Source of the DNA: Oscillospiraceae bacterium
Lineage (GTDB): Bacteria; Bacillota; Clostridia; Oscillospirales; Ruminococcaceae
Direction of reading: 5' to 3'
Assembly (NCBI GenBank): GCA_021200565.1
Contig: JAJQGJ010000017.1
Location: 92,382-156,381 of the forward strand
DNA: 64,000 nt
The notes under the pieces: generated by a model
What the model saw: only the letters and a program-made list of their open reading frames with translations
The model's database searches: none
What the model was told of the DNA's origin: nothing
Shown here: positions 2,727-33,092 of the stretch, one piece after another
Layout of the letters: the number at the start of each line of letters is the position of its first letter
Numbering within the stretch: position 1 is the first letter of the stretch
Position numbers and translations under genes: made by a program

Positions 2727-2755
2727 TTGACAAACTCGACAGAAAGTGATAAGAT
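2727..2755 (+). promoter_or_regulatory. Promoter of the pilus-locus front genes
   Basis: Consensus TTGACA (2727-2732), a 17-base spacer, and TAAGAT (2750-2755). It lies over 200 bases before the first gene at 2970, implying a long leader. Confidence 0.7.
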
Positions 2756-2761
2756 GACTAC

Positions 2762-2969
2762 TGATGGATTTAATATTGCTAAAAGTACAAAATGACGTGG
2801 GGGGGGTAGTGCCTCCGGCACTGGATTTAATATAGTGCCATGCATTTGCCTGCTCATGCTCTCCGAATATGTTATTGCTCGGAGGCTTTGTGTTCGTGAC
2901 CTCCTGCGTGCGATTGCGGGAGGTTCTTGTTTAGTAAGTAGGAAGTTATTTAATCTTGGAGGGCAATCC
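2762..2969 (+). promoter_or_regulatory. Long structured 5' leader with G8 tract
   Basis: About 208 bases of untranslated leader fill the stretch between promoter and gene. They hold: TGGATTTAATAT twice (2765-2776 and 2822-2833); a run of eight G (2799-2806); AGTGCC (2808-2813), GGCACT (2817-2822) and AGTGCC again (2834-2839), so the middle block can pair with either neighbour; a hairpin CTCCGA...TCGGAG (about 2860-2883); and ACCTCC...GGAGGT around 2900-2925. The ribosome site TTGGAGGG ends the leader. I recognise no known riboswitch class. The remaining part of the 2600-2969 gap (2600-2726) shows nothing clear. Confidence 0.6.
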
Positions 2970-3428: not shown

Positions 3429-4022
3429 TTGTCAGATCATAAAAAGAAACGTGAGTTGGTTCTCCCAACCGAAGAAGAAGTTCAGGCTGAACGCAGGCGT
3501 CTTAAATTCCGGAGAAGATTTATAGCTACGCTGAGAACGACGGTTTATGCCTTGATTGTAGTCGCTGCTGTGGCGGTGCTTCTGGCAACGCTGTTTTTGC
3601 CCGTCCTTCAGGTTTCCGGTTCGAGCATGGAGCCAACCCTCTCAAACAACGATATTATACTTCTTTTCAAAACAGATAAACTTGAAACTGGCGATCTCAT
3701 CGGCTTCTACTATCAAAACAAGCTTCTTCTGAAGCGGGTCATCGGAGTCGCCGGGGATACAATCGACATCGACGAAGAAGGGAACGTCACCGTCAACGGT
3801 GAACTCATCGATGAGCCGTATGTGACAAACAAATCAATCGGCGAGTGCGACATAGATTTGCCTTACCAGGTTCCCGAAAACCGTGTTTTCGTTATGGGCG
3901 ACAACCGTACAACATCAATAGATTCCCGAAGCAGTGCCATTGGCTGCATCGAGGAAGACCAGATAGTAGGAAAGGTTCTCATGAGAATCTATCCGTTCAA
4001 CAAGATTACAATTATCGACTGA
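3429..4022 (+). CDS. lepB: Type I signal peptidase, pilus-locus associated
   Basis: 197-aa membrane protease that would remove signal peptides outside the cell. One N-terminal transmembrane segment (about residues 37-58) is followed by the catalytic serine motif SGSSMEPTL, the catalytic lysine in LLKRVIGVAGD, and the C-terminal box MGDNR...SRS. The start is TTG 3429 with AAGGAG eight bases upstream. Sortase loci often carry a dedicated SipA-like signal peptidase, and in some such paralogs the catalytic residues are lost; here Ser and Lys are present, so an active enzyme is expected. It is followed after about 50 bases by the giant adhesin, its probable substrate. Confidence 0.92.
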   Translation: MSDHKKKRELVLPTEEEVQAERRRLKFRRRFIATLRTTVYALIVVAAVAVLLATLFLPVLQVSGSSMEPTLSNNDIILLFKTDKLETGDLIGFYYQNKLLLKRVIGVAGDTIDIDEEGNVTVNGELIDEPYVTNKSIGECDIDLPYQVPENRVFVMGDNRTTSIDSRSSAIGCIEEDQIVGKVLMRIYPFNKITIID

Positions 4023-4075
4023 TAAGTACCATTTTCCAGCTAAGTGATTCCAAATCTAAAGAAAGAAGACTAAAT

Positions 4076-7000
4076 GTGAAAAACACAGTTCTGAATTGCA
4101 TAGACAGATTCAGGCATGATCGCCATGAGCGATTGATGCTTGGGTCGGTCTTGCTTGTTTTAGCTGTCGTTGTTACACTTTTAGTTTACTGGCAGCTCCG
4201 CTACACCGGTATAACCATGACAAACGTCACCTATTGTGGCTGTGAAGAGCATGTCCACACTGAAGAGTGCTACGAATACACACTGATTTGCGGCTTCGAG
4301 GTGTCTGAGGGTCACACTCACGCCGATGAATGCTATGAATCGGTAGAGGTTCTCACTTGCGGCTTGGAAGAATCTGACGAGCACACCCATGATGAATTCT
4401 GCTACGAAACCCAGCTTGCGTTGATTTGCGGTCTGAAAGAATTCGATGGTCACACCCACACCGATGAATGCTATGAGAAAACCCTTATCTGCGGATTAGA
4501 GGAGCATACTCACACTGTTGAGTGCCTCATAGACTTAACCGCCGATGTTGAGGATGAATCGGTCTGGACTCTGACTCTTCCGACACTTTCCGGCAACCTG
4601 AGAGCAGACGTTGTCAACGTTGCCTGCTCGCAGCTTGGCTATACAGAATCCACCGCTAACTATTCTGTCGGCGAAGACGGTGTCACCCATTATGGTTACA
4701 CCCGCTATGGTGCCTGGTATGGAAACGAATATGGCAGCTGGAATGCGATGTTTGCAGCGTTCTGCCTGCATTATTCCGGGGTTGACGAAACCGAATTCCC
4801 TGTGAATTCCGGTGCCTATTCCTGGGCAGTTCAGCTGAGTGAACTCGATTTGTATGCTTCAGCATCTGAATACAGTCCAGAGCTTGGTGACCTTATCTTC
4901 TTTGATACAGACCTTGACGAAAGAATATTGACCGAGTCGGCATTGTCTATGCTATGGATGAATCCACCATCACTGTCATCGAGGGTGACTATACCTTAGA
5001 TAATCTCGACACCGTCGCAATTAACACTTATAGTCTAACAGATGCGATTATTTCCGGCTATGGTATTCTTCCTGCTTCAGAAGAAATCTCCTCTGAAGCT
5101 GAGGCATCAACAGAAGAAACCGAAACCGGTCCAGATACAAATACAGAAACCGAAGAGACTGAGCTAGTCATTGAATCGACTTACTACACTGCCTCCGATG
5201 GAGGCGTGACTGTCACGGTAGTCGCTCCGTCGGGAGCCCTTCCGGACAATGCGGTGCTTTCAGTTAATCTTCTGGATGAAGAAAGCGACGAATATGCCTC
5301 AGCTGCCGAAGCGGTTGGCTATGATTCCGCAAGTGAAGAGTCCGGCATGGCAGCTCTTGACATTGCCTTCTATGATCAATACGGCAACGAAGTTGAGCCT
5401 TCTGTCGCCGTCACCGTCTCAGTTGACATCGCTTCGATTATCCCGGACGGCACCACAGCAGAAACTCTCGAAGTCAGCCATATCACCGAGACGGAAGTTG
5501 GTACCGAAACAGTAACCACCGTCACAGCAGTAGAAACCATCACCGAAACCGTCACCGATAGCACCGATGAAACAGCTGTGGTAGTCTTTGAAACTGAGAG
5601 CTTCTCAACGTTTACGCTGACTTGGAGTGTTACTATACTGTTCACACACACTGAGACCATTGATGTTAATGTTTATGACGTAGATACTGGTGATCTGATT
5701 CCGGCTACATCTATCTCAAATATTTCAAATACTTTTGACTCTGGCGTTGATGCTTACTTAGACAGCATATGCACTGTTGACGGCTATGAATACCAGTATG
5801 CAACAGTTACCTATACGGCTGATGGACAGAGTTATACAGTTCAGCTGGATACAATAGTATGTTCTTATAACTGGCTGTTCGGAACCTGGTCTTACGAGAT
5901 CGACGGTTCTAATATCAATGGAAGAAATGTAAGCATAAGCAACATCAACTTATACTTCAAACAATCCGCAGTGGTAACTACTGCTGAGTTGATTGTCAAT
6001 AAGTACGCAACCGGAGGAAGCACTCAGCTTTCAGGCGCAGTGTTTGAGCTGACAAGCCTGAGCTCCGTGTCGTTAACTGACGTAACCGTTGGAAATGGCG
6101 TTGATGTTTCCTACAGCAGTGACGGATATACTGTCACATTCACGACAGATGGCAGTGCAATAACCCTCACCGGGTTGCCAGCTGGAAGCTATACACTCAA
6201 AGAAACAACGGCACCAACCAATTACTATGTAGCGACGGACTTTGAATTCACTGTTTCAGGCGGAGCTATCACTGATTACGACAGCAGATATGACTCCACA
6301 ACTAACGCCGTCACCATCTATGACACAGAAAAGACCGCCGGGCTCACTATCTACAAATACGAAACAGGCGGAAGCACTCAGCTTGAGGACGCAACTTTCA
6401 AGCTAGTGAGTGATGTTTCACTTTCAAATGTCACATCGAGCACCGGCTATATCCGAAATACTGATGAATATACTATCACATTCACAACTACAGATACCGC
6501 CCTTACTTTCGACAATCTGCCGAACGGAAGCTACACCTTGACAGAAACCTGGGCGCCGACTGGTTATGATACGGCTGATCCAATCACCTTCACGGTTTCC
6601 GAAGGAGAGGTTTATCTCGACGGCAGCACCGTAGCGACAGATTCGATAATCGTCTATGATGAGATGTTGACATATGAGCTCAACGTTTCCAAGAGCTACG
6701 CAAGCTCCAACGGCAATGCAATCACGGTTGGAGTCGATGACCTGGAGGCTGAATTCACCCTCAAGTCAGTAGACAACACTAACACTCCCGACTATGAGGA
6801 AACCATAGTCATCACCGGCGCAAGCACAGGCGTCTTCGAGGGTCTTGCCTACAACGGCACCTATACTCTCTCAGAGACCACTGTACCCACCGGCTACACT
6901 ACGCCAGCTGATATAACCATCACGGTTGTAAACGGAGTCATCTATGTAGACGACGCCGAAATCGACACAGCCTATGTGACCAACGTTGACACTAATCACA

Positions 7001-10000
7001 CCCTGAACGGCATGAGCTATGCGATAGCGAATCTGAATTCTGCTCGTGATTATGCTTTGACAGCGGAAGTCATTTCTACTGGTGGTATGAACGCAGATTC
7101 TGTCACGGTTGTTGGAACGGATACTGATGGGACGACTATCATATATGGTACCGATACTATCTGGACGTTTGAAGCTGTTTCAGGTAAGGATGATGTTTAC
7201 TATGTGTATACTACCGTTGGAGATACTACGTATTACTTGAATATAACCCGAAACTCCACAGTCAAGTCTGGACTTTCTGTAAGCACAACTGCGCAAGAAA
7301 TCTCAGTAATAGAGGGCACTGGAACTTATGAGGGACAATATAGATTATCTTACGATAGTTCAAGCTACAGCTCTTGTGTTAACTGGTATGGTGGAAGCAA
7401 TGCCAGCAATCTGATTTTCGGTGCGTGGAATGCATATGAAAACAACGATTACCAATACCTCTGTAGGGTTGTCGACACTAATGGTTCTTTGCTGCTTTAT
7501 GATCTGAACCTTGGTGGGGATGTTTCTTTGGATACTACATCCGGAAGCGGATGGTATACAAGTAGCTATGATTCAACCACCGATTCCTGGACCTGGACGG
7601 CTACGAGCGGGACGGATTATAATCCTCCGGACACTTCGACTATTCAGGTGGCTTCCACAGGCTCCACACTTTACGAGGTTCTCGGAAAAGGCGAAAACGG
7701 ATATTATACCTACGTTTCCGGACAACGATTGTCCATCGCACAGCAGCTGATTGCAGACGGTAAATCTCCTGGCAAGGAATTCCGGTTTGATGGATGGACG
7801 GCAACCGTCGACAATGTCACCTATACCTTCGCTGCAGGAGCTGAGATCGTAGATATTGACTCCAATGGTTATATCTATATCTATGATACGAGTGGCAATC
7901 TGGTGGCTCTTCCTAGCGGCACAAAACTCACCGCTCAGTGGACGGAGATTTCCGACATAGTCATGTTCTTCGTCAACTACTCAGGAACGGTTCTGGATGT
8001 TGAGGGCGACGTAACCGGACGAAACCAGAAGGAATTCACCGGCATCATCTCCATCGGTCATGTTTACTTCGGCACAACAAGAGTCGGAAGCGATAGTACA
8101 TTCGCATCCGATGCAGATGCTACTATCCGAGAAGACTTCGCTTATACAGTCAATTACAATGACGAAATTGTCCAGATTGTAATTGAGTACGTAACCATAA
8201 ACGGACAGGGAATCTACAACCTTGCAGAAGGTATCAACGACAGTATTCTTGATGATTATCTGCTCGAATACATACGTGAAAGCGGTATAACAATTAAGAT
8301 TAGTGCCGCTGACGGAACCAATCCTGCAATCGAAAACGAAAACGCCACGACAGATAACTACACCGTCCGTTGGTACGTCTTAAAAGAACAGGTTGATGGA
8401 TGGCACGTCGACGGCGTTATGGTTGCAATCACTGCCGAAATGACCATCACAAAGACCTTCAGCGGTCTCAGTGATTCAGAGGTTGAATCGATTCTTGAGG
8501 TCTACAATATGCCTCTGACAGTCGGCGTGGATTCAAAGACCGGTGAAAGACAGGAATACGTCACCATCTATGCTGCAGACCCGGTAAGCACCGACAATGT
8601 AACTGCAAACGGCGTCTATGAATACGAAGGTCAGGTGGGTTCAACTCAGAGCTATCGTTGGGTGCTGAATGCGATAACCAACGAGGAATACACCCTGACA
8701 GAGGAGGATTATGAGCTTTCCGGCTATAACGTCGCAACCCTTGCTGTTCTCTACTATACCGACGAATACGGCAACGAGCAGTATGTTTCCGGCTGGACAA
8801 CCACCTCTGATGACCTTTCAGAAGTAATCACCGGCGGAACCACGACGGCGTTCAGCTTCAACAACTTCTACACTCCGATTGAGACGGGAATACTTGCCAT
8901 CATCAAAACCGATGAAAACGGCTCAACGCTCAGCGGTGCGGAATTTACATTGACCGATTCGGGCGGCAATGAGACAACGGTCTCATCAAACGTAAATGGT
9001 CTTGCACTCTTCAACGATCTCTCGCCAGGAACCTACACTCTCGTTGAAACATTGGCTCCTGACGGCTATCAGCTCAACGACACTGTCTGGAGAGTTGTAG
9101 TCGCTGAGGACAGCAGCAGTAATGTCACCGTTACCGTATATGCTTCAACCGACGGCGGCTTGACCTACGATACCGGCGCTGTCTACTACGACAGCTCAAC
9201 CGAGTCGATGCAGTATCTCACGGTCACTGATGAAGTGGCGAACGAAACCGTTGTCATCACAAAGAACTTCGGCGGCGAGCTCACATATGCGCAGATGCAG
9301 GTAATATATGATGCAAGTACGTCTTCTAACGACTATGCGACAAATGCAAACAGCACCTACACCCGTCTGCCATACTATATCGAGCTTGAGGATAGCAACG
9401 GCAACACCCAGATTCTCTATCTTGAAAGTGCCACCCGCTCCCAGACCGGCTTCACCTACACATGGACCCTTTCCGGCATTGATGCTGGGGACTGGACCAT
9501 TGCCGAATACAACTACATCTACGATGTCTACATTGACACCACGGTTACCGCCACGGTTGACGGAGCTGATGGCACGGTGAGCGTTAACGGCACCGGGATG
9601 TCAAGAATTGCTTCCTTCGGTGCGGAGTTCACGGACAGCGAAAGCAATTCAGTTGTCATCTCGAACGTCTACACAAACTACTTCACCCTTAGCATTCTAA
9701 AGGTTGACAGCATCAGTGGCGAAGTCCTCGACGGTGCCACCTTCGATGTCTACGGTTCCTATGCGGAATCAACTGATGTCGATAACAACTTCACCTACAC
9801 TGACGGCAATGGCATTGATCGAACGGTCTACTATATAGGCACCATCACAACTGACACAAACGGCATTGCCACCATCTCCGGCTTGAAGCTCTCAAACGAC
9901 GACAATTCCTATGAATACGTCCTTGTGGAAACAGAAGCCCCGACTGGCTACACGGCATCGACGGAGCAGACGTACATAACAGTCTACGTTGACTCAAGCG

Positions 10001-10185
10001 GCTACAACACCGGCGTCTACACCATCGAAATTGCCAACGTCCCCGACAGCATCATTGTGATGCCCCAGACCGGCGACAGGGGAACAAAACTGTATACAAT
10101 GGCAGGCTTACTGCTCATCTGCAGTGCAGGCTACCTTATGTATAGAAAACAAAAGCGAAAATGCAAGTGGAGGTGGAATATCTGA
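4076..10185 (+). pseudogene. Giant multi-SpaA adhesin/pilus tip protein, frameshifted
   Basis: Read as one gene of about 2,036 codons. Order: N-terminal membrane segment (about residues 22-40); five repeats of the type C-G-x-E...H-T-H-x-x-E-C-Y-E (4226-4535); a CHAP/NlpC-like domain (about 4600-5060); a Glu/Thr-rich stretch; then at least five SpaA/Cna_B-like domains with Lys...E-box pairs such as YTLKETTAP, YTLTETWAP, YTLSETTVP, YTLVETLAP and VLVETEAP; and an MPQTG anchor, hydrophobic helix and basic tail. Two frames meet near 4922-4932: the first runs on to 4999, while the second continues with RVGIVYAMDES. Restoring one base (or removing two) rejoins them. The usual catalytic His of the DHVGIV motif reads Arg, so the enzyme domain is probably inactive. 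GTG 4076 is the likely start (weak ribosome site). As assembled, the full protein cannot be made. A sequencing error is possible. Confidence 0.8.
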
Positions 10186-10261: not shown

Positions 10262-11817
10262 ATGAAAAAACTAAAAAGATTTGTTAGTCTGCTGTTAGCT
10301 ATGGCAATGGTAATGAGTCTGACCTTGTGTGGGGGGTAGTGCACGCTGCCACGGAGACGCAAGAGGTTGACACCAACTTGGGTGGCGAAGGCTCCATCAC
10401 CATTACAGATGCAGTCGTCGGTGAAACTTACACTGTATACAGAATGCTCGATGTTACTTATAACGCTCAGTCTGGTGCATATTCCTACACGGTTAATTCT
10501 GATTGGGCAAGCTTCTTTGCACAAAATTCAATAAGTGGAACTGGTGGATATGTAGTCATTGACACCAACGGACACGTATCGTGGAACGGCGTAACTACGA
10601 GTTCTGGCACTATTGCTGCTCAATTCGCTTCACTCGCACTTGCATATGCAGAAGAGAACAATATTAGCTATACATACCAGACAGTGGCAACAACTACTGG
10701 CAATGAGACTGCAGTTGACTTGACATTTACTGAGCTTCCTTATGGCTACTATCTCGTAGATTCATCCTTAGGTGCTCTTTGCGCACTCGATTCTACCACA
10801 CCATCTGCTAGTGTTGCTGATAAAAACACATCATATGTACCTACAGTTGAAAAGGAAGTAAAGGAAGATAATGGCGGTAACTTTGGTCAAAGTAATGTTG
10901 CTAACTTTGAGGAAGATGTCGAATTTGAAATCGTAATTACATATCCCTACAATATGAGCAACTTAATCCTTCATGATACATTGCCCTCTGGCTTTACTCT
11001 TAATGCTGATAGCTTTAGTCTTTACTATGGTACTGTTTCCGGTGACTACACGATAGATAGTACTTACTACACAATAACAACTGGTACTGCATATACATCA
11101 TGTGGCTGTTCATTTGAAGTTGCATTTGATGAGGACTGGCTTGCAACACTTGCTCAAGCAAACAAAATCTATGTTTACTATACTGCACATGTTGAAGAAA
11201 CTGCTTCAGTTGGCTATACAACACCTAATGTAAATACTACATGGGTTACATATGGTAATAGTAACACAGAATCTGAGCCATCCACTACTAATACTTATAT
11301 CTACGATTTGTATGTTTATAAGTATGCATCAGTAACTGATAATACTCAGAATCCTCCGGTTACTACTGAGACAGCACTTGCTGGCGCATCATTCATCCTT
11401 TCGGTCAGCACTGGAGAGTATGCTACATTCGATTCGAACGGAAACTTCACTGGTTGGACGTCTAATTCAGCAAGCGCAACGGCTTTGACTTCTGACAGTG
11501 ATGGTCTTATTCACTTTACTGGATTGGATTCAGGTACTTACTATCTGACTGAGACAGAAGCACCTGCTGGTTACACAAAGGCTGCATCATACGCTACAAT
11601 CACTATAAGTGACAATGGTGATGTAGATGCATATGTATCTTGTTCTGCTTCTCCGACCGGTTATGCTGTAACCGTTGAGAACAGTACTTCGAGTAAGATG
11701 CCTTCAACCGGTGGTATCGGTACTACTATCTTCTACATCGTCGGTGGCGTACTGGTGGTTGGGGCTGTTGTGCTGCTGATTACTAAGAAGAGAATGAAGA
11801 GCGACAACGATAAATAA
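10262..11817 (+). CDS. Backbone pilin, off-frame at a G6 tract in the signal peptide
   Basis: Major pilin-like protein. ATG 10262 follows AAGGAG and opens a typical signal peptide (MKKLKRFVSLLLAMAM...), but after LTLCGG the frame hits TAG at once. The run of six G at 10331-10336 is the break: four or seven G would continue into VVHAATETQEVD with an Ala-x-Ala-like cleavage site. The mature part (to 11817) has a Lys-rich TVEKEVKE segment, two Ig-like pilin domains, an E-box YYLTETEAPAGY, an MPSTG anchor, a hydrophobic helix and KKRMK. Codon use here is more A/T-ending than in the adhesin, hinting at exchange. The class C sortase at 11954 is its likely polymerase. As read, the pilin is OFF; slippage or a base-calling error are both possible. 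Confidence 0.85.
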
Positions 11818-11953: not shown

Positions 11954-12832
11954 ATGAAGCAATCTTCCAAAAAGAAAAGATCCATAGCAAGCTGGCTGGG
12001 ATCTGTTGCGCTGGTTTTGGTGCTCGTGGCGGGAGTGCTTATTGTCTTGTACCCTTCAGTCAGTAACTGGTGGAATAATAATATCACTACCCATGTTGTG
12101 CAGAGCTATGAGGAGGAGATTTCTTCACTGTCAGAGGAGGACTACTCGGCATACCTCGAAGCCGCTCAGGAGTTTAATGAGATGCTCGCTGAGATGGGAT
12201 CACGCACTGCTTTTCTCTCAACCGATGAGCTTGAAGAGTATGGATATTATGACATCCTCAACATCACCGGAACCGGCATCATGGGATATGTAACGATTGA
12301 GACGATAAATGTTGAGCTCCCTATATATCATGGAACTTCAACCAGTGCCCTTGCAGCTGGTGCGGGACATCTTGAAGGTACAAGCCAGCCAGTGGGTGGG
12401 GAGAATACACATTGTGTTATCTCCGCACACAGAGGGCTTCCGAGCGCATTGATGTTTACCCGGCTTGATGAGCTCGAAATAGGGGACACCTTCACGATAA
12501 CCGTCCTGGGTGAGGTTCTGACGTATGAGGTTGATAAGATTTCGATAGTTGAGCCGGACGAGATGAGCTATCTCTATATCGAGGACGGCAAGGACTATTG
12601 CACGCTGATGACCTGCACGCCGTATGGAATCAATACCCATAGGTTGCTTGTAAGGGGAGTCAGAATCGAAACCACCGAGACAACCCATATCAAGGTCACC
12701 GCAGAGGCTTATAAAATCGATACGGTGGTCGTTGCAGTAATTGTGGCGATACCGCTGATAATAATATTGTTTATAATAGCATCGCTTCCGAGAAAGAAGC
12801 ATATTGATGAACAGGGGAGGGACGACATATGA
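11954..12832 (+). CDS. Class C (pilus-polymerising) sortase
   Basis: 292-aa membrane transpeptidase. N-terminal helix at about residues 12-32; catalytic His in ISAHRGLPS, Cys in LMTCTPYG, Arg in LLVRG; C-terminal helix VVVAVIVAIPLIIILFIIA and a basic tail, the class C layout. The GGTGGAGGG site upstream fixes ATG 11954; the longer frame enters the repeat. It lies directly after the backbone pilin and overlaps the minor pilin by 4 bases (ATGA), so it should polymerise these subunits. Much of it matches the orphan sortase at 830, including GTGIMGY, GAGHLEGTS and TAEAYKIDT. Confidence 0.93.
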   Translation: MKQSSKKKRSIASWLGSVALVLVLVAGVLIVLYPSVSNWWNNNITTHVVQSYEEEISSLSEEDYSAYLEAAQEFNEMLAEMGSRTAFLSTDELEEYGYYDILNITGTGIMGYVTIETINVELPIYHGTSTSALAAGAGHLEGTSQPVGGENTHCVISAHRGLPSALMFTRLDELEIGDTFTITVLGEVLTYEVDKISIVEPDEMSYLYIEDGKDYCTLMTCTPYGINTHRLLVRGVRIETTETTHIKVTAEAYKIDTVVVAVIVAIPLIIILFIIASLPRKKHIDEQGRDDI

Positions 12833-13554
12833 AAAAAATGAAATTTCTGTCGGTAATATTAGCTGTCGCAGTTGCAGTTTCTATGTGTATGACATGCGTC
12901 TACGCCGTGACAGGCTCGATAACCGTGACGGTGAAATATGGCGACACAATAATCACCGACGGTGTCTTCACCATCTACAGAGTCACCGATAGTAGATATA
13001 ACTTCACGAGTGACTTCGAAGGCTTTGGCTTTGATATTACAGATCTTGAGGACTCAACTCTCCCGTGGCTTCTCTGGCAGTGGGCGATACAGACCGGTGT
13101 CTCCGGCAGCCAATCGTTAGCTGTCGGCTCTGACGGAACGGTAACGTTTTCTGGACTTGAGATGGGAATATATCTCGTGGTTCCGTCGACTAATCCTGTC
13201 GGCTATGACGTGGAGCCGAGTCTGGTTTCCATACCATCGAACGGCGAGTATGACGTGACGCTCATAACGAAGATTGAGACTATAACGACTCCCACTGATG
13301 ATCCAGGCAGACCAATTCCAACGCCAACAACCACAACCGAACCGGATGTTGAAATCGAGGATGAAGACGACCCAGAAGAGCGTGGAGAATCCGAGGATGA
13401 GGTTGACCTCGGAGACGAGGATGAGCCAGAGGCAGAAGAGGAAACTCTGCCTAAAACCGGTCAGCTCAACTACCCGATCCCCATAATGGCAGGAGCCGGG
13501 GGAGTATGCATAGCTGTTGGCTTCATACTCACAAAGACGGATAAAAAGCGATGA
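12829..13554 (+). CDS. Minor/basal pilin with LPKTG anchor
   Basis: 241-aa cell-wall protein. A signal peptide (residues 1-26, ending VYAV) is followed by one SpaA-like domain with the box MGIYLVVPS, a Pro/Thr then strongly acidic spacer (about residues 150-205, rich in Glu and Asp), the sorting signal LPKTG, a hydrophobic helix and DKKR. The acidic spacer and single domain suit a base subunit that joins the fibre to the wall. It overlaps both neighbours by 4 bases, so it is translated together with the two sortases. It is the only locus protein with a canonical LPXTG; the other two have MPQTG and MPSTG. Confidence 0.85.
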   Translation: MKKMKFLSVILAVAVAVSMCMTCVYAVTGSITVTVKYGDTIITDGVFTIYRVTDSRYNFTSDFEGFGFDITDLEDSTLPWLLWQWAIQTGVSGSQSLAVGSDGTVTFSGLEMGIYLVVPSTNPVGYDVEPSLVSIPSNGEYDVTLITKIETITTPTDDPGRPIPTPTTTTEPDVEIEDEDDPEERGESEDEVDLGDEDEPEAEEETLPKTGQLNYPIPIMAGAGGVCIAVGFILTKTDKKR

Positions 13555-14159
13555 ACAGAACTGTTATTGGACGTATTCTTATTGTGATAGGCGTTCTGCT
13601 GCTGATCGGTGCGCTTTCGCTCTATCTCTATAATCGTTATGATGCTGACAGAGCGGCTACTGCGTCAACTGAAACTGAGGAGAAGCTTTCCGATGCCATG
13701 ATAAACGCAGTCGGTTCCGAGTATTCTCTTGAAGTTGAAGAGGATGAAAACGGAGAGCTCTATTCGGTCGTAACTCTCACGGTTGATGAAGAGGGCTATA
13801 TAGGCATTCTTTCGATACCGTCGTTTGGCTTGGAGCTTCCGGTTCTTTCCGAATGGAGCTATGCAGGACTTAAGAATTCTCCTGCAAGATACACTGGCAG
13901 CGCAAGCGCCGGCAATCTCGTTATCTGCGCTCACAACTACGAACGTCATTTCGGCAATATAAAGAACCTCTCAACCGGAGCTTCCATTACATTTACCGAT
14001 GTAACCGGAGCGGTTTATGAGTATGAAGTCATAGAAGTTGAAACCATACAGCCGACTGCCATCAGTGAGATGATAACCGGCGACTGGGACTTGACGCTCT
14101 TCACCTGCACCCGTTCCGGTGCGGCAAGAGTGGCGGTCAGGTGTCAACTTGTCAGCTGA
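13551..14159 (+). CDS. Second sortase, probably wall-anchoring
   Basis: 202-aa sortase with one N-terminal membrane helix (about residues 8-28) and no C-terminal anchor. Catalytic residues are visible as His in VICAHNYERHFG, Cys in LFTCTRSG and Arg in VAVRC. The lack of the C-terminal helix and the TCTRSG motif set it apart from the class C enzymes and resemble class D or other housekeeping-type sortases. It follows the minor pilin by a 4-base overlap, so it may attach the finished pilus to peptidoglycan through the LPKTG base subunit. The exact class is uncertain. Confidence 0.85.
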   Translation: MNRTVIGRILIVIGVLLLIGALSLYLYNRYDADRAATASTETEEKLSDAMINAVGSEYSLEVEEDENGELYSVVTLTVDEEGYIGILSIPSFGLELPVLSEWSYAGLKNSPARYTGSASAGNLVICAHNYERHFGNIKNLSTGASITFTDVTGAVYEYEVIEVETIQPTAISEMITGDWDLTLFTCTRSGAARVAVRCQLVS

Positions 14160-24604: not shown

Positions 24605-24632
24605 TTGACAAACAAATTTCGGGGGGTATAAT
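24605..24632 (+). promoter_or_regulatory. G6-spacer promoter 1
   Basis: TTGACA (24605-24610), 16-base spacer ending in six G (24621-24626), TATAAT (24627-24632). The same design recurs at 29326 and 31266. Drives the lipoproteins from 24666. Confidence 0.85.
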
Positions 24633-29329: not shown

Positions 29330-29352
29330 CAAAATTTTTCGGGGGGTATAAT
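29326..29352 (+). promoter_or_regulatory. G6-spacer promoter 2
   Basis: TTGACA (29326-29331, overlapping the previous stop codon), 15-base spacer ending in G6 (29341-29346), TATAAT (29347-29352). At 15 bases the spacer is two short of the optimum. Confidence 0.85.
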
Positions 29353-31265: not shown

Positions 31266-31332
31266 TTGACAAATTTTGGCGGGGGGTAAAATGTTATGTG
31301 AACCCTTTTCGCTCATTTTGGTGTCTATATAA
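31266..31332 (+). promoter_or_regulatory. G6-spacer promoter 3 with conserved start block (copy 2)
   Basis: TTGACA (31266-31271), 15-base spacer ending in G6 (31281-31286), TAAAAT (31287-31292). The 35-base block at 31298-31332 follows at the expected transcript start, matching 27441-27475 with four differences. Confidence 0.75.
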
Positions 31333-31768: not shown

Positions 31769-33092
31769 ATGAAAGAGAAAAGACGAGTACAGTTAGATGA
31801 TATGATAAGCTCGTTCCGGGAAATATGGAAGTATGATATCGGTTTTGCAAATCATAAGGCAGAAATACAATCTGCAGTTTCAGAATGACTCATCAAGGGA
31901 ACAGCGAAGGCTCGGCTATGTGTCTCAGATTCCGAAAAACATACCCGCAAAGAAAGACATTGATATGTTCGATCTTCGGAGCTATGTTTTCAGTAAAATT
32001 GAGCATTTTCAGAAGAATATACTGAGCCTCAATCTGCACCGGATCAAGAAAGACGGTGTAGTAAATCTTGCTACTTTCCTCCTCACCACGATATTCCAGA
32101 TTTCAGCCTATCTGCTGATTGGAATAGATGCGTTGAAAGGCACAATCTCAGTCGGTGAGTTCACGATGGGCGTGGCGTCGCTTATCAGCTTTATGTCGGC
32201 ATTCTCATATGTGGCGACAAATATGCTGAACTTCAACAACAGCCTGAGCTATATCCATATGTATAAATCCTTCCTTACATATGAAAGCAAGTTTGACGAT
32301 GACAAGGGACTGACGCTCGAAGACCTCAATCTTGATGATATTGAAATCGAGTTTAAGAATGTGTCGTTCCGCTATCCAAACAGCACTTCTTATGTTCTCC
32401 AAAACATCAATCTGAAGCTCAGCAGTAAGGAAAAGCTTGCAGTTGTCGGCTATAACGGAGCAGGAAAAACGACTTTCACGCTGCTCCTGACCAGAATGTA
32501 TGAACCGACAGAGGGCGAAATCCTCCTCAACGGAATCAACATCCAGAAGATAAACTACAGGGATTACCTGAAAATCTTCTCGGCAGTGAATCAGGATTTC
32601 TTCCTGTTCCCATTCACCATTCTTGAAAACGTCGCCGGAAAGAGCGAGGTTACGGACGAGGAAAAAGAAAAGCTCATGGAGCTGTGCGGGAGCGTTGGAA
32701 TGGAAGAAAGAATAGGGAGGATGTATCGTGGCTTAGACACGCCTATCACGAAAGAGTTGTTTGCCGCAGGGATAGACTTGTCAGGCGGAGAAAGGCAGAA
32801 GATTGCTATATTGCGCTCACTTTATAAGGATTCTCCCGTCCTTATCCTTGACGAACCGACCGCCGCTCTCGACCCGATTGCAGAATGTGAGATATACCGC
32901 AACTTCGCCGACATATCCGACGGAAAGCTCACGGTGTATATCTCCCACAGAATCAACAGCACTCGCTTCTGCGACAAGATAGCCGTGTTCGACCACGGTC
33001 AGATAAAGGAGTATGGGACGTTCGAGGAACTCATGGACCTGCATGGGCTGTATTATACCTTCTTTGAGACGCAGGCGGAGATGTATAAATGA
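31769..33092 (+). pseudogene. Decayed ABC exporter
   Basis: ATG 31769 opens a normal N-terminus (39 codons, FREIWKYDIGFANHK) that ends at TGA 31886-31888. A second frame then gives only the last part of the membrane domain (from about LGYVSQIPKNIP) and a complete ATPase (GYNGAGKTT, LSGGERQ, LILDEP, ISHR). Compared with its neighbours about 170 residues, roughly four helices, are missing near 31840-31890. This looks like an internal deletion with frameshift. The 3' part has an in-frame ATG at 31833 but no convincing ribosome site. Confidence 0.75.

What the first reader, a model, noticed from the sequence alone, without database searches (positions are those of the whole stretch)
10325..10345. 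Run of six G switches the backbone pilin off inside its signal peptide
From ATG 10262 a good signal peptide is read until the G6 tract at 10331-10336, which is followed at once by TAG. With seven (or four) G the frame joins the rest of the pilin, which is intact to its MPSTG anchor. A homopolymer at this spot is the usual design of slipped-strand phase variation of surface structures. Slippage is inferred; a base-calling error in a homopolymer is the main alternative.
Basis: partly seen in the sequence, partly recalled or inferred. Interest (0 to 1): 0.78.

Follow-up and report, generated by a model that had tools for sequence, protein, structure and literature searches.

The report
Slippable G-run inside a pilin gene
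A run of six G's breaks the reading frame of a surface-fibre (pilus) gene in a bacterium whose genome carries dozens of look-alike G-runs in front of, or inside, surface genes, so it is most likely one switch in a genome-wide set that lets cells turn surface parts on and off at random.

Summary
In detail: G6 at 10331-10336 ends the signal-peptide frame of a sortase-type pilin (ATG 10262) at an immediate TAG; the rest is open to its MPSTG anchor in one other frame. A G6 run alone is not unusual here; its context is. In this genome 35 of 53 runs of six or more G are followed by TA (about 5% after G3-4); 28 of the 35 are preceded by G[T/C]; the reversed pattern occurs 0 times. These tracts lie between promoter boxes, inside exopolysaccharide genes, and in leaders of surface-protein and pilin genes. 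Across eleven congeneric genomes, 11 of 16 groups of orthologous tracts differ in length although their flanks align without gaps, including two coding tracts with opposite frame states. I favour slipped-strand phase variation over a base-calling error. Weaknesses: no read-level data; six G is short; none of 18 other LPxTG frames examined has such a tract; the adhesin of the same operon is also frame-split. The principle is known (Bifidobacterium pili). New is the shared element and, in leaders, evidence that the tract pairs with the terminator's CCTCC arm: a possible slippage-tuned RNA attenuator.

The parts
10331..10336 (+). G6 tract
10327..10342 (+). 16-base tract core with the conserved flanks (TGT before, TA after); identical to the core in the leader of another pilin of this genome (L057)
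10262..10339 (+). Start and signal-peptide half of the pilin, ended by TAG directly after the tract
10342..11817 (+). Rest of the pilin in another frame: SpaA domain, MPSTG anchor
2799..2806 (+). G8 tract of the same motif upstream of the pilus operon (the orthologous operon in G009 has G7 at L252:518)
2727..2755 (+). Promoter-like site TTGACA-17-TAAGAT upstream of that tract (consensus match only)
2807..2823 (+). Hairpin directly after the G8 tract
3845..4999 (+). ORF holding the N-terminal piece of the tip adhesin (homology begins near 4076)
4954..10185 (+). Remaining piece of the adhesin in another frame; five SpaA stretches
11954..12832 (+). Sortase
12829..13554 (+). Second, small LPxTG pilin (LPKTG)
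13551..14159 (+). Second sortase
24621..24626 (+). G6 tract between TTGACA and TATAAT
29341..29346 (+). G6 tract between TTGACA and TATAAT
31281..31286 (+). G6 tract between TTGACA and TAAAAT

Best explanation
The G6 tract is a contingency (phase-variation) tract. During replication the tract gains or loses G at a low rate, which moves the pilin between a dead frame (the assembled state: signal peptide, then stop) and a productive one. It belongs to a family of G[T/C]-G(6-9)-TA elements that this bacterium uses at three levels: length of the promoter spacer, reading frame of surface genes, and leader attenuators. The pilus operon would thus be controlled twice, by a G8 tract in its leader (2799) and by the G6 tract in the pilin. 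Shown: the broken frame, the element, its enrichment, length differences between orthologous tracts of different species, and a mixture of open and broken coding tracts. Inferred: that the change is slippage, that it is reversible, that it happens within populations, and the three readouts.
For: Frame break exactly at the tract with one productive frame behind it. 35 of 53 G>=6 runs in the genome are followed by TA against 5.5% after G3-4 (p 1.5e-31); the reversed pattern occurs 0 times. Of the 35 tracts, 34 have T or C at -1, 28 have G[T/C], 18 have TG[T/C]. Many of the genes concerned are, by eye, surface, pilin or exopolysaccharide genes. Coding tracts of this genome: broken frame at L043, L052 (the pilin), L064, L066, L067 and the first tract of L068; open at L038, L039 and the second tract of L068; L041 and L042 run on to an ATGA overlap with the next gene; L040 and L065 unclear; L044, L048, L049 and L061 not assessed (L066 judged from the protein, since a chance frame is open across it). 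Two orthologous coding tracts (L067/L139 and L068/L137) differ by one G, with no other gap in the aligned overlap, and have opposite frame states. 11 of 16 orthologous groups vary in length. Precedent with experiment: Bifidobacterium breve pilus G-tracts (PMC9187656; abstract and sections 3, 12, 15, 18, 21 read).
Against: No read-level or within-strain data. G6 is shorter than the 8-13 G of the Bifidobacterium table, so the switching rate may be very low; MutS is present. None of the 18 other LPxTG frames printed has a G run of 5 or more in its first 120 nt (two of them start inside a protein; some loci, such as L005, L010 and L014, gave none). The adhesin of the same operon is also split into two frames near 4930, not at a homopolymer, which fits a decaying operon. 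5 of 16 orthologous groups show no length change; the flanks were chosen ungapped, so no rate relative to other indels follows. G>=6 runs as such are not enriched in the window. The conserved flanks are unexplained for coding sites.
Confidence: 0.78

Rival explanations
1. The pilus operon is decaying: the G6 is just the place of one of several inactivating indels and will not revert.
For: The adhesin of the same operon is split into two frames near 4930, while the orthologous adhesin of G009 is one 1812-aa frame and the paralogue upstream in this genome is open across the corresponding place. No other pilin examined has the tract (18 frames).
Against: The break lies exactly at a tract with the genome-wide conserved flanks; the rest of the pilin, both sortases and the second pilin are open.
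Confidence: 0.12
2. The assembly is wrong at the homopolymer (base-calling or assembly error) and the gene is simply intact.
For: Only one assembly was seen; homopolymers are error-prone; the adhesin is split too.
Against: G6 is short for a sequencing error (recalled); errors would not choose G>=6 runs with shared flanks; orthologous tracts differ in length in the assemblies of other species.
Confidence: 0.06
3. The frame is corrected in expression: ribosomal frameshifting or RNA polymerase slippage at the G-run makes a low level of full pilin from the G6 gene.
For: G-runs are known slippery sites (recalled); a stop directly follows the tract.
Against: No unusual RNA fold around the tract (z 0.17); six G is short for transcriptional slippage (recalled).
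Confidence: 0.04

Closest known systems
G-tract replication-slippage switch of sortase pili in Bifidobacterium breve (bbr_0113, bbr_1889; PMC9187656)
   Same: Homopolymeric G-tract near the 5' end of a pilin gene separates signal peptide and LPxTG part into two frames; several species and strains with different lengths.
   Different: There 8-13 G and the first gene of the cluster, here 6 G and the gene after the adhesin; no common flanking element or leader attenuators are described in the sections I read; slippage was measured there, not here.
Pil1 phase variation by attenuation in Streptococcus gallolyticus (PMC3894217; passages read)
   Same: Repeat-length change in a leader with a terminator in front of a sortase-pilus operon.
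   Different: There GCAGA repeats change a translated leader peptide; here, in leaders, the tract itself can pair with the terminator arm, and the few leaders I looked at by eye show no convincing leader peptide.
RepG / tlpB variable G-repeat in Helicobacter pylori (PMC8295292; passages read)
   Same: Length of a G-repeat in an mRNA leader sets expression through base pairing with a C/U-rich partner.
   Different: The partner there is a small RNA in trans; here the CCTCC partner is in cis in the terminator.
Promoter poly-G tract of Neisseria meningitidis porA (PMC3639595; start of abstract in a search listing)
   Same: A variable G tract in a promoter.
   Different: Here promoter tracts are another class (24621, 29341, 31281); the pilin tract is coding.

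Membership tests
Slipped-strand (simple-sequence-repeat) phase variation | Repeat tract positioned so that unit gain or loss changes frame or promoter spacing | tested here: met
Slipped-strand (simple-sequence-repeat) phase variation | Tract length differs between strains or cells at the same site | tested here: inconclusive
   Met between species for other tracts of the family, 11 of 16 groups; no orthologue of this tract found; no strains or reads at hand
Slipped-strand (simple-sequence-repeat) phase variation | Reversible ON/OFF expression in a population | not testable with these tools
   Needs reads, colonies or staining
Sortase-dependent pilus locus | LPxTG pilins with signal peptides plus dedicated sortase | tested here: met
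   Pfam SpaA, Gram_pos_anchor, Sortase; signal peptide and LPKTG read by eye
[quoted passage not shown]
   Signal and anchor halves are separated by a G-tract, but the gene follows the adhesin; works alike, not filed as a member
S. gallolyticus-type leader-peptide attenuation (for the leaders, not the pilin tract) | Translated leader peptide running through the repeat | tested here: inconclusive
   No systematic test; a few leaders read by eye show no convincing start with ribosome site
LoaP/RfaH-type antitermination (considered for the leaders) | Specialised NusG paralogue | tested here: not met
   One NusG-family hit (PF02357) in the genome
Any Rfam RNA family (leaders) | Match at the gathering score | tested here: not met
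   0 matches in 8 sources; permissive search of 4 loci with leaders gave 2 hits, both far below their gathering scores

The most novel reading that the evidence does not exclude
The tract belongs to a genus-wide element in which G-tract length is read out as RNA structure. In the leaders the tract pairs with the CCTCC arm of a terminator while its last G's close a neighbouring hairpin, so each G gained or lost adds or removes an antiterminator pair: a slippage-tuned transcription attenuator in cis. The same element has been placed inside coding genes such as this pilin, where the readout is the reading frame.
Probability: 0.42. Interest if true: 0.82.

Novelty: new variant of a known kind. Interest (0 to 1): 0.64.

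Why it matters
If right, this genus has a contingency-gene repertoire on the scale known from mucosal pathogens (recalled), controlling pili, surface proteins and exopolysaccharide, with a shared, searchable motif. That makes surface heterogeneity directly measurable from existing reads. The leader class would be a new way to turn repeat length into transcription without a leader peptide or a trans-acting RNA.

Tried and rejected
LoaP/RfaH-like antitermination as the reason for the shared motif: rejected, only one NusG-family hit (papers seen as a search listing only). Known RNA family: none. The pilin tract as an RNA structure: no unusual fold (z 0.17). The pilin tract as a promoter: rejected by eye, no -10 box after it. 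Insertion of a mobile repeat as the source of the tracts: considered because flanks recur in unrelated genes; not tested beyond flank tables. Transcription-pause consensus (TGYG) as the reason for the flanks: recalled only, not tested. TGT-G7-TA outside the genus: of 119 genomes of the family (two of them from this genus), 7 have a match, this genome 5 and the six others one each.

Results that came out weaker than hoped: in the second set of leaders the covariation holds in 29 of 29, Fisher 2e-4 by rows, but is not significant after coarse clustering (11 clusters, p 0.36), and 4 of the 29 (L223, L225, L237, L248) had flanks already present in the first set, so 25 are new. RNAalifold of 43 leaders recovers only the tract:CCTCC helix, not the hairpin after TA, whose arms vary; a shuffle test was used for that (38 of 42 leaders, 4 dropped for lack of CCC). 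The classes are mechanical: the pilin tract itself and some clear promoter tracts (L047, L063, L122, L127) fell into 'other', and some 'coding' sites of distant genomes may be chance. One search's first table was recounted place by place, with the same numbers.

Full report
Observation. The frame from ATG 10262 is a 25-residue signal-peptide half that ends there; the pilin continues in one other frame to MPSTG and a charged tail. Searched alone, the downstream half matches SpaA (3e-15) and Gram_pos_anchor. The operon runs: leader with a G8 tract (2799), signal peptidase (3429-4022), tip adhesin in two frames, pilin, sortase, small pilin, second sortase.

Is the tract more than chance? Length alone is not: the window has 5 G/C runs of six or more, and 50 Markov-1 copies of it have 6.9 on average. 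The context is. All five are on the + strand and followed by TA, against 0.34 expected. Genome-wide there are 53 runs of six or more G and 35 of them are followed by TA, while the pattern read backwards occurs 0 times. In the DNA of this genome that I hold, TA follows G3 in 92 of 1699, G4 in 17 of 298 and G5 in 1 of 35 runs (these loci were fetched partly by the motif, so the unbiased figure for G>=6 is 35 of 53, p 1.5e-31). Counted place by place, 34 of the 35 tracts have T or C before the tract, 28 have G[T/C] and 18 have TG[T/C]; lengths are 6 in 18, 7 in 14, 8 in 2 and 9 in 1. In 31 genomes of the genus the motif occurs 712 times against 148 for the reversed control; in this genome and G006-G015 297 against 21, in G001-G005 20 against 12, in G016-G030 395 against 115 (sums made).

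Where the tracts are. I classified 139 distinct sites mechanically: 33 of this genome, 29 from loci given one per genome, 77 from G006-G010 (not all sites of those genomes were fetched). 12 lie between TTGAC-like and TAnAAT boxes with 6-10 G (three in this window); 18 lie in open frames on both sides; 44 are leaders with a CCTCC-type motif downstream; 65 were left as 'other', among them the pilin tract, further promoter tracts and tracts at gene junctions of exopolysaccharide operons. Leaders of this genome stand, by eye, mostly before secreted proteins and pilins.

Coding tracts behave like switches. In this genome L043, L052 (the pilin), L064, L066, L067 and the first tract of L068 have a broken frame; L038, L039 and the second tract of L068 an open one; L040 and L065 are unclear; L041 and L042 end in an ATGA overlap with the next gene; L044, L048, L049 and L061 were not assessed. 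Two pairs of orthologous coding tracts in this genome and G006, L067/L139 and L068/L137, have 6 and 7 G with no other gap in the aligned overlap, and their frame states are opposite. Over 150 distinct sites in eleven genomes (G000, G006-G015), 28 between-genome pairs have ungapped flanks of at least 80% mean identity; the tract length differs in 17 pairs, and in 11 of 16 groups; of the seven groups with a member in this genome, six vary. The flanks were chosen to be ungapped, so this gives no rate relative to other indels.

The pilin tract itself has no orthologue in what I saw. Of 18 other LPxTG frames printed from the genus loci (two of them in this genome, two starting inside a protein), none has a G run of 5 or more in its first 120 nt; some loci gave no frame by the rule used. 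A search of the genus with the downstream half found matches in 12 of 31 genomes. The orthologous operon of G009 has an uninterrupted pilin and adhesin and a single G7 tract, in the leader. So intact relatives exist, and the tract inside the pilin was seen only in this genome while the leader tract is shared.

Leader element. RNAalifold on a MAFFT alignment of 43 leaders gives a single consensus helix, the G-tract with CCTCC. The base before the tract and the base after CCTCC covary: C-G 19, T-A 14, T-G 7, C-A 0, with 2 A-G mismatches, in 42 leaders (Fisher 5.5e-6; 15 clusters, p 0.003). As a second test I searched G011-G015 with a pattern that leaves both bases free: 31 matches, control 0; of 29 distinct leaders read, 15 are C-G, 9 T-A, 5 T-G and none a mismatch (Fisher 2e-4 by rows, but p 0.36 over 11 coarse clusters). 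Four of the 29 had flanks already in the first set, so 25 are new. In many leaders the same CCTCC is, by eye, the 5' arm of a GGAGG/GGGGG hairpin followed by T's (sequences). The four bases after TA pair with those before CCC: summed score 130 against a shuffle mean of 94.5, maximum 113 in 2000 shuffles (38 leaders). Inference: the tract is shared between a hairpin (last G's with CCC) and an antiterminator helix (first G's with CCTCC), so its length sets the balance. This concerns the leaders; the pilin region shows no unusual fold (z 0.17), and the G8 leader at 2799 has a hairpin but no ACCTCC soon after the tract and only z -1.19.

How it most likely works. Replication slippage changes the tract length; in the pilin this moves the frame. 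Steps shown: broken frame, shared element, length differences between species. Steps inferred: slippage as the cause, reversibility, expression of pili in the other state. Rivals are decay of the operon (the adhesin is also split near 4930, not at a homopolymer), assembly error, and recoding during expression.

Known relatives. Bifidobacterium pili use a G-tract between signal and anchor frames, with measured slippage and tracts of 8-13 G (PMC9187656; abstract and sections 3, 12, 15, 18, 21 read). Streptococcus gallolyticus Pil1 couples repeat number to a terminator through a leader peptide (PMC3894217, passages). Helicobacter RepG binds a variable G-repeat in trans (PMC8295292, passages). Searches for slippage-based phase variation in Ruminococcus-like or other gut bacteria and for homopolymer attenuators listed no report of this element (openly licensed PMC papers only; only the listed rows were seen, not all hits, and no paper was opened apart from the three named).

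Noticed in passing
window 4900-5000: The tip adhesin of the pilus operon is split into two frames near 4930, not at a homopolymer; the orthologue in G009 is uninterrupted.
   Followed up: partly
window 24621, 29341, 31281: Three promoter-like sites with a G6 tract directly before the -10 box, upstream of a lipoprotein-like gene and of ABC-transporter ORFs (names by eye); candidate phase-variable promoters.
   Followed up: partly
L222-L251, L045, L046, L057-L060, L062, L069 and others: A family of leader RNAs (GY-G6-9-TA, hairpin, CCC, ACCTCC, terminator-like hairpin) before surface-protein genes; no Rfam match in those searched.
   Followed up: partly
L041, L042, L160, L174, L208, L209: Tracts near the 3' ends of genes or between genes of exopolysaccharide-like operons, followed by the next start codon; in L041 and L042 the longer frame overlaps the next ATG (ATGA), suggesting switchable translational coupling.
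   Followed up: no
L122, L127, L128: More distant genomes of the genus have tracts of 10-11 G directly before TA-rich -10-like boxes.
   Followed up: no
L126: G9 tract inside an ORF that by eye (recalled NPPY motif) looks like a DNA methyltransferase; possible phase-variable modification.
   Followed up: no
window 31833-33092: ABC-transporter-like ORF of 419 aa, shorter than its neighbours of 607, 633 and 592 aa; possibly truncated.
   Followed up: no
L222-L251 and other tract sites: The G at -2 (29 of 29 leaders) is not explained by the pairing; it recalls the RNA polymerase pause consensus (recalled, untested).
   Followed up: no
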